Source: Gammaproteobacteria bacterium (GTDB taxonomy: Bacteria; Pseudomonadota; Gammaproteobacteria; S144-34). Taken from it: a DNA stretch of 39,240 nucleotides. The stretch spans positions 1 through 39,240 of the forward strand of contig JALSJE010000135.1 of the NCBI GenBank assembly GCA_026989495.1, read 5' to 3'. The notes beneath the pieces were generated by a model. The model was not told where the DNA came from and did no database searches. It saw nothing but the letters and a program-made list of their open reading frames with translations. The position numbers were made by a program, and so were the translations under genes. Every line of letters starts with the position of its first letter. Position 1 is the stretch's first letter. Positions 28,018 through 28,463 of the stretch are shown one piece after another.

Positions 28018-28463
28018 TCAGTGGTGATCCTCGCAGCCGCCGTCCACCTCGTCCTTGCCTTCGAAACGGAAGGTGATGCGCGGAAACGCTGATCAATCCG
28101 CTGCGCGGATTGATCAGCGCGATGGCGCTTCGCGGTCCATTCTGATTTTCCTTGAGTCGTCATGCACTTCCCTGTGCATGGGCCGTCCCGCGGCCGTCCC
28201 TGGCCGCGGGGAAGCCCTGAAAAATCGGATTTTTCAGAGCTTCCGCGCCAGCTTCCGCTGACCTGCACCGCCCGGGTTCCCTTCCGCCGGCCGGGGAGCT
28301 CGTGCAGGCGCGGCCCCGGAAGCGCCATGTCGCCGGGTCCGGTGGCGGCGTCCAGATGGGCGAGGATGAGCCGGAGCCGCTCCACATGCCTCGCCTGGAT
28401 GCCTGCCTTCGTCCCGCGGGTGAAAAATCTTTCGGGCCCCTTGTGCCGGAAGCTTCGGATCGC
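28018..28463 (-). pseudogene. higB: higB toxin, split by a hairpin element
   Basis: Reading the minus strand, the HigB sequence IRSFRHKGPERFF through ATGPGDMALPGPRLHEL to AVQVSGSWR ends at 28249, is interrupted by 163 bases of repeat element, and resumes as RITFRFEGKDEVDGGCEDHH followed by TGA at 28020-28018, the normal end of the protein. Joining the two parts at the 4-bp GCGC duplication gives an uninterrupted ancestral frame. Translation through the insert shifts frame afterwards, so no intact toxin can be made. In addition, the codon where homologues have their start ATG reads GCG (28463-28461), so the gene is broken twice. higA downstream is intact. Confidence 0.88.
28082..28244 (+). mobile_element. 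163-bp four-hairpin MITE-like element, copy 1 (in higB)
   Basis: The element splits higB and is flanked by GCGC on both sides (28078-28081 and 28245-28248), a likely target duplication. Its ends are imperfect inverted repeats, GGAAACGCTGA and (complement of the other end) GGAAGCTCTGA. It folds into four hairpins: 14-bp stem 28088-28118 with loop TGC; CATGCAC / GTGCATG with loop TTCCCT (28161-28180); 9-bp stem 28187-28210 with loop GTCCCT; CTGAAAAATC / GATTTTTCAG (28217-28237). It codes for no transposase, so it must be moved in trans. A second copy lies at 29352-29514. Confidence 0.82.

What the first reader, a model, noticed from the sequence alone, without database searches (positions are those of the whole stretch)
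28018..28463. A 163-bp hairpin element split the toxin gene higB and left higA as an orphan
Both halves of HigB are readable (…AVQVSGSWR up to 28249, RITFRFEGKDEVDGGCEDHH from 28077) and rejoin perfectly if 28082-28244 and one GCGC are removed. The flanking GCGC repeats and similar ends (GGAA-x3-CTGA) are what a small transposed element leaves. HigB family knowledge supplies the expected uninterrupted sequence; the transposition mechanism is inferred. The start codon of higB also seems lost, so the toxin was inactivated twice.
Basis: partly seen in the sequence, partly recalled or inferred. Interest (0 to 1): 0.78.

Follow-up and report, generated by a model that had tools for sequence, protein, structure and literature searches.

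The report
Small jumping element inside dead higB
A 163-base non-coding "jumping" element, one of roughly 180 copies in this bacterium's genome, has landed in the toxin gene of a toxin-antitoxin pair whose genes also carry other damage; the kind of event is well known, but this family of elements seems undescribed.

Summary
28082-28244 is exactly one 163-bp element flanked by GCGC. Both higB halves match intact HigB relatives with no residue missing at the junction. The element is one copy of a high-copy, genus-restricted MITE-like family: about 180 copies (about 120 full-length) are estimated in this genome, it occurs in both available congeners, and none of 34 genomes of other genera has more than trace similarity. 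In 90 full copies, 41 have an exact 4-bp target duplication (1.2 expected) and no other length peaks. Filled/empty pairs between congeners show single-copy TTAG, GCAA, GCAT and TGCC at empty sites. Transposition is therefore shown for the family and strongly inferred for higB. No empty site exists at this locus, because the congeners lack higB; G001 has a TumE-like pair there instead. The cognate transposase was not found in five family searches or in half the genome. New family of a known kind in a pseudogene; modest interest. Useful by-products: the family, its covarying terminal hairpin, and the toxin-antitoxin slot beside xth.

The parts
28082..28244 (+). 163-bp MITE-like element (orientation: GGAAACGCTGATC end at 28082, CAGAGCTTCC end at 28244)
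28078..28081 (.). target-site duplication, left copy (GCGC)
   Evidence: a 4-bp duplication is the family rule
28245..28248 (.). target-site duplication, right copy (GCGC)
28082..28119 (+). left terminal hairpin (stem about 28087-28119), includes the left inverted-repeat end
   Evidence: helix 1, columns 10-34
28161..28180 (+). internal hairpin CATGCAC-TTCCCT-GTGCATG, nearly invariant in the family
   Evidence: helix 3
28187..28210 (+). internal G+C-rich hairpin CCCGCGGCC-GTCCCT-GGCCGCGGG, nearly invariant
   Evidence: helix 4
28210..28244 (+). right terminal hairpin GGAAGCCCTGAAAAATC-G-GATTTTTCAGAGCTTCC; arms covary across copies
   Evidence: helix 5
28245..28463 (-). HigB N-terminal part (about 73 codons), lacking a usual start codon
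28018..28081 (-). HigB C-terminal part (about 20 codons, conserved tail region) with its stop
27765..28016 (-). HigA antitoxin gene, HTH core intact, truncated by a frameshift; ATGCAC-type repeats at its start
27705..27767 (-). out-of-frame remainder of the HigA C-terminus (LDLWKLERQGRCPRVRWLHAA*)
   Evidence: compared with relatives
29352..29515 (+). second, diverged copy of the same element (76% to consensus), between xth and the 29532-30134 gene
   Evidence: absent from the G001 orthologous locus

Best explanation
28082-28244 is one copy of a non-autonomous, MITE-like transposable element. A transposase acting in trans, not identified, recognises the GGAA(A/G)CtCTGAt... ends, cuts the target with a 4-nt stagger and inserts the element; gap filling leaves a 4-bp direct repeat (here GCGC). 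The copy inserted into higB between the codons for W and R of SGSW|R, 20 codons before the stop, separating most of the toxin from its conserved C-terminal tail. With the missing start codon in higB and the frameshift in higA, the locus is a decaying toxin-antitoxin pseudogene pair. Shown: the family, its borders, the 4-bp duplication rule, empty sites elsewhere, the split reading frame, the other lesions. Inferred: trans mobilisation, the staggered-cut mechanism, and that the higB copy arose in the same way.
For: Multicopy: 40 scored full-length or near-full places at E<1e-56 in the own genome; 91 copies (62 full) in 51% of the genome, so about 180 in all; 309 terminal-repeat matches genome-wide against 0 for the reversed control. 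Target duplication: 41 of 90 full copies exact at 4 bp, 1.15 expected, no peak at other lengths. Empty sites: L074/L109 TTAG, L127/L082 GCAA, L058/L127 GCAT, L044/L093 TGCC. HigB identity and gapless junction. Other lesions. Distribution limited to the genus.
Against: No empty allele of this higB exists in the genomes searched. No transposon with matching ends was found in half the genome, and five transposase-family searches gave no candidate. GCGC is itself a palindrome and continues the end symmetry, so at this one site the duplication could partly be chance.
Confidence: 0.93

Rival explanations
1. REP/REPIN-type palindrome family moved by a Y1 (RAYT) transposase as single-stranded DNA.
For: High copy number, hairpins, mostly intergenic; one Y1_Tnp protein in the own genome on contig C114.
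Against: 4-bp target duplications and empty sites do not fit ssDNA Y1 transposition; no Y1 transposase found in G001 or G002, which carry the elements; the Y1 locus has no element beside it.
Confidence: 0.03
2. The element is a functional RNA or terminator kept for the host, and its hairpins are selected as RNA.
For: Covariation in the stems exceeds shuffles and slid partners; about 90% of copies lie outside predicted genes in a ~90% coding genome.
Against: No Rfam family. Palindrome-templated correction or transposase-end recognition would give the same covariation; intergenic bias is expected from purifying selection alone. It explains maintenance, not arrival.
Confidence: 0.1
3. Assembly artefact: a repeat wrongly joined inside higB.
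For: Fragmented draft of 143 contigs, some ending in this repeat.
Against: Exact GCGC duplication, HigB frames meeting exactly on both sides, and the copy sits inside a 39-kb contig.
Confidence: 0.02
4. The insertion created a working HigB-HigA fusion: one open frame (27765-28988, -) runs from the HigB N-part through the element into HigA.
For: The frame is open without a stop and both protein matches lie in it.
Against: No usual start codon at higB; the fused frame lacks the in-frame HigB tail and the HigA C-terminus; long chance frames are common at 73% G+C.
Confidence: 0.02

Closest known systems
Prokaryotic MITEs (Correia, Chunjie, QMITE1/QMITE2; review PMC10969869, PMC5896051)
   Same: Short, non-coding, inverted ends, direct repeats, tens to hundreds of copies, mostly intergenic, truncated copies common, occasional gene inactivation.
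   Different: No relative found in plasmid, phage or viral collections; 4-bp duplication; confined to one genus of three genomes; no partner IS found. Direct sequence comparison with those named MITEs was not made.
MITE inactivation of the mcy cluster in Anabaena (cited in PMC10969869)
   Same: A natural MITE insertion switching off a gene.
   Different: Here the target is a small toxin-antitoxin gene that carries other lesions as well.
HigB/HigA type II toxin-antitoxin (PF05015, TIGR02607; PDB 4MCT)
   Same: Gene order toxin then antitoxin, families, length of both parts.
   Different: Toxin split and start-less; antitoxin C-terminus frameshifted.

Membership tests
MITE (non-autonomous DNA transposon) | short, no transposase gene | tested here: met
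   163 bp, too short for a transposase; copies align by hairpins, with frame-shifting indels
MITE (non-autonomous DNA transposon) | terminal inverted repeats | tested here: met
   GGAAACTCTGATCAAT / GGAAGCyCTGAAAAAT consensus ends
MITE (non-autonomous DNA transposon) | target-site duplication of fixed length | tested here: met
   4 bp, 41/90 exact against 1.15 expected; empty sites
MITE (non-autonomous DNA transposon) | many dispersed similar copies | tested here: met
MITE (non-autonomous DNA transposon) | autonomous transposon sharing the ends | tested here: inconclusive
   none in 1.29 Mb of G000; family searches gave only an IS1182-like and an IS5-like element with other ends; half the genome was not read
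REP/REPIN with RAYT | linked Y1 transposase, no target duplication | tested here: not met
IS5-group derived | GGAA ends, 4-bp (CTAG-like) duplication, IS5 transposase in the genome | tested here: inconclusive
   end letters and duplication length fit from memory, but duplications here show no CTAG preference and the only IS5-like copy (G001) has other ends
HigB toxin | PF05015 domain upstream of HigA | tested here: met
   N-part above cut-off; HigA TIGR02607 downstream
HigB toxin | intact reading frame with start and conserved C-terminal tail | tested here: not met

The most novel reading that the evidence does not exclude
A genus-specific transposable family whose ends are each a hairpin kept paired by compensatory change, moved with a 4-bp stagger by a transposase of no family recognised in any of the three genomes, so that the terminal hairpin itself is the recognised substrate (minimal 43-bp palindromes also occur).
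Probability: 0.08. Interest if true: 0.55.

Novelty: new member of a known kind. Interest (0 to 1): 0.3.

Why it matters
It documents a MITE-like family, apparently uncatalogued, at about 70 copies per Mb in a little-known gammaproteobacterial genus, with clean filled and empty site pairs. It gives a natural case of a toxin-antitoxin locus in decay, and a chromosomal slot beside xth that holds different toxin-antitoxin pairs in congeners. It does not change current ideas on MITEs or toxin-antitoxin systems.

Tried and rejected
Autonomous partner: inverted-end pairs 220-5000 bp apart were searched in up to 51% of the genome; the hits were chance pairs over ordinary genes, for example pheS-infC-thrS. 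Transposase families PF01609, PF05598, PF13546, PF13586 and PF13701 gave only an IS1182-like element (ends GGGGGCTGTTGAAAAA) and an IS5-like element (ends GAAGCTATCTCAAAAAT), neither matching. Y1/RAYT was rejected. Rfam gave only sub-threshold chance matches. An intact higBA in congeners was not found. The first strict pattern in genome contigs failed because congeners differ at one base; the degenerate one found 24 stretches, all from two Gammaproteobacteria MAGs. The first empty-site alignments had wrong strands and were redone. Papers: nothing on a MITE splitting higB was found.

Full report
WHAT IS THERE. On the + strand the sequence is TGAT-GCGC-[GGAAACGCTGATCAATCCGC...GGATTTTTCAGAGCTTCC]-GCGC-CAGC, with the bracketed 163 bp at 28082-28244. 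A profile HMM built from the family sets the same borders. higB lies on the - strand around it. The N-terminal part (about 73 codons) is HigB by Pfam (PF05015, E 9.5e-9) and by comparison with solved HigB (4MCT, E 2.7e-8). The last 20 codons lie on the other side. The two pieces were never joined; aligned separately to intact HigBs of Thiolapillus, Rhodoferax and Polaromonas plasmids, they abut at SGSW|RITF with neither gap nor overlap.

THE ELEMENT IS A FAMILY. The own genome (G000, 2.54 Mb, 143 contigs) contains many copies (40 scored near-full places among 185 first-look candidates). In the 1.29 Mb I could read there are 91 copies, 62 of them full-length, which extrapolates to about 180 and 120. 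A 17-base end pattern matches 309 times genome-wide against 0 for the reversed control. The two congeners available (G001, G002) carry it in high copy number; of 34 other genomes of the class only one shows a trace match. A degenerate core pattern in 84,980 species genomes hit 24 contigs, all from two Gammaproteobacteria MAGs, S144_34 and S012_21. Plasmid, phage and viral collections hold none. The copy in higB is about 93% identical to the family consensus, among the ten closest of 90, which with the perfect duplication suggests a fairly recent insertion (inference).

IT TRANSPOSES. Of 90 full copies with flanks from the three genomes, 41 have an exact 4-bp direct repeat at the borders; 1.15 are expected from shuffled flanks (maximum 6 in 500), and no other length shows a peak. 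The duplicated words are varied (TTCA, TGCT, GCGC, TATA...), so there is little target specificity beyond C being rare at position 1. Orthologous filled and empty sites between species give the junction directly...AATCTTAG[el]TTAGGTGG against ...AATCTTAGGCGG...TTTGCAA[el]GCAAGG against ...TTTGCAAGG; likewise GCAT and TGCC. One G002 copy has its less clean empty counterpart in this very window near 20203. For the higB copy itself no empty site is available, because congeners lack higB; transposition there is an inference from family behaviour and from the exact GCGC repeat and reading-frame junction.

ANATOMY. Each end is part of a hairpin: the left one is CTGATCAATCCGC-TGC-GCGGATTGATCAG; the right one is GGAAGCCCTGAAAAATC-G-GATTTTTCAGAGCTTCC, in which both arms look like the terminal repeat. 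Two further hairpins lie inside, and the whole is folded far beyond shuffles. On 74 copies, 97.2% of pair cells are standard; 12 pairs show changes on both sides against 4.7 in shuffles, and slid partners lose this. The strongest covariation is in the right terminal hairpin (columns 140/169 and 141/168). This shows that pairing is maintained; it does not tell selection on DNA ends from selection on RNA or from palindrome-templated correction. Partial copies (29 of 91) and 43-bp solo palindromes also occur. Of 102 testable copies, 92 lie outside ORFs called by a simple hexamer model, although the model calls about 90% of the sequence coding; the model is crude, but the direction is clear.

WHO MOVES IT. 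Unknown. No inverted-end pair around a transposase gene was found in half the genome. Searches with PF01609, PF05598, PF13546, PF13586 and PF13701 found one IS1182-like copy in G000 and one IS5-like copy in G001, with other ends. A Y1 transposase was found in G000 only and has no element beside it. Loss of the autonomous parent after amplification, or its absence from the draft, are the simplest readings.

STATE OF THE LOCUS. higB has no ATG, GTG or TTG in frame between the end of xth and the conserved I-x-S-F start; the codon where relatives have ATG is GCG. The element plus duplication (167 bp) shifts the frame, so the HigB tail is also out of frame with the N-part. higA keeps its HTH core (TIGR02607, E 6.6e-26) but stops at ...WQNHQAR*, while another frame reads LDLWKLERQGRCPRVRWLHAA*, which resembles relatives' YDLWQA... 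tail in start and length: a frameshift. So at least three lesions are present and their order cannot be told. An insertion into an already silent toxin gene is as likely as insertional killing. The 407-aa open frame that runs through HigB N-part, element and HigA has no plausible start at higB and is probably a by-product of 73% G+C.

NEIGHBOURHOOD. G001 has the same neighbours (M3 peptidase, SH3-like gene, xth, Fis-type regulator), but between xth and the regulator it carries a TumE-family toxin gene (PF20126, E 3.2e-14) with an HTH partner instead of higBA. The slot therefore holds different toxin-antitoxin pairs in congeners. G001 also lacks the second element copy seen at 29352-29515 in the window.

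VERDICT. Known kind of event, solidly supported; the family itself appears not to have been described in what I could search, and its mobiliser is open.

Noticed in passing
window 29352-29515: Second, more diverged copy (76% to consensus) of the same element between xth and the SH3-like gene; absent at the orthologous place in G001 (L196).
   Followed up: yes
L196 2338-3008 (-), orthologous to window 27500-28517: In congener G001 the slot beside xth holds a TumE-family toxin gene and an HTH partner instead of higBA: a possible toxin-antitoxin exchange site.
   Followed up: partly
window 27523-27651 and 26100-26237: The Fis-type HTH end of the 25008-26237 regulator is repeated as a free 42-aa frame (REALAVAGGNV[ST]RAAH[LM]LGISRASLYRLMARHGIE); probably a remnant of a lost regulator gene or a partial duplication.
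   Followed up: no
window 27974-28013: ATGCAC-type repeats at the start of higA give several in-frame possible start codons (MHMHTHMRMH).
   Followed up: no
L028:22-64, L127:17763-17805, L110:18012-18048: Short (about 37-43 bp) near-perfect palindromes made of the left end alone; might be minimal derivatives.
   Followed up: partly
L035:10627-10802, L116:6971-7153, L122 near 130, L029:10401-10582: Copies with doubled or tripled end repeats (GGAAACTCTGA-C/T-GGAAACTCTGAT; ATTTTTCAGACCTTCC repeats), as if elements inserted into or extended at ends of other copies.
   Followed up: partly
L086 1-2427 (G000 C47): IS1182-like element apparently nested in an IS256-type transposase gene, with ends GGGGGCTGTTGAAAAA.
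   Followed up: partly
window ~20203: Empty counterpart of an element that in G002 (L064:8086-8249) sits in the last codons of the orthologous gene.
   Followed up: partly
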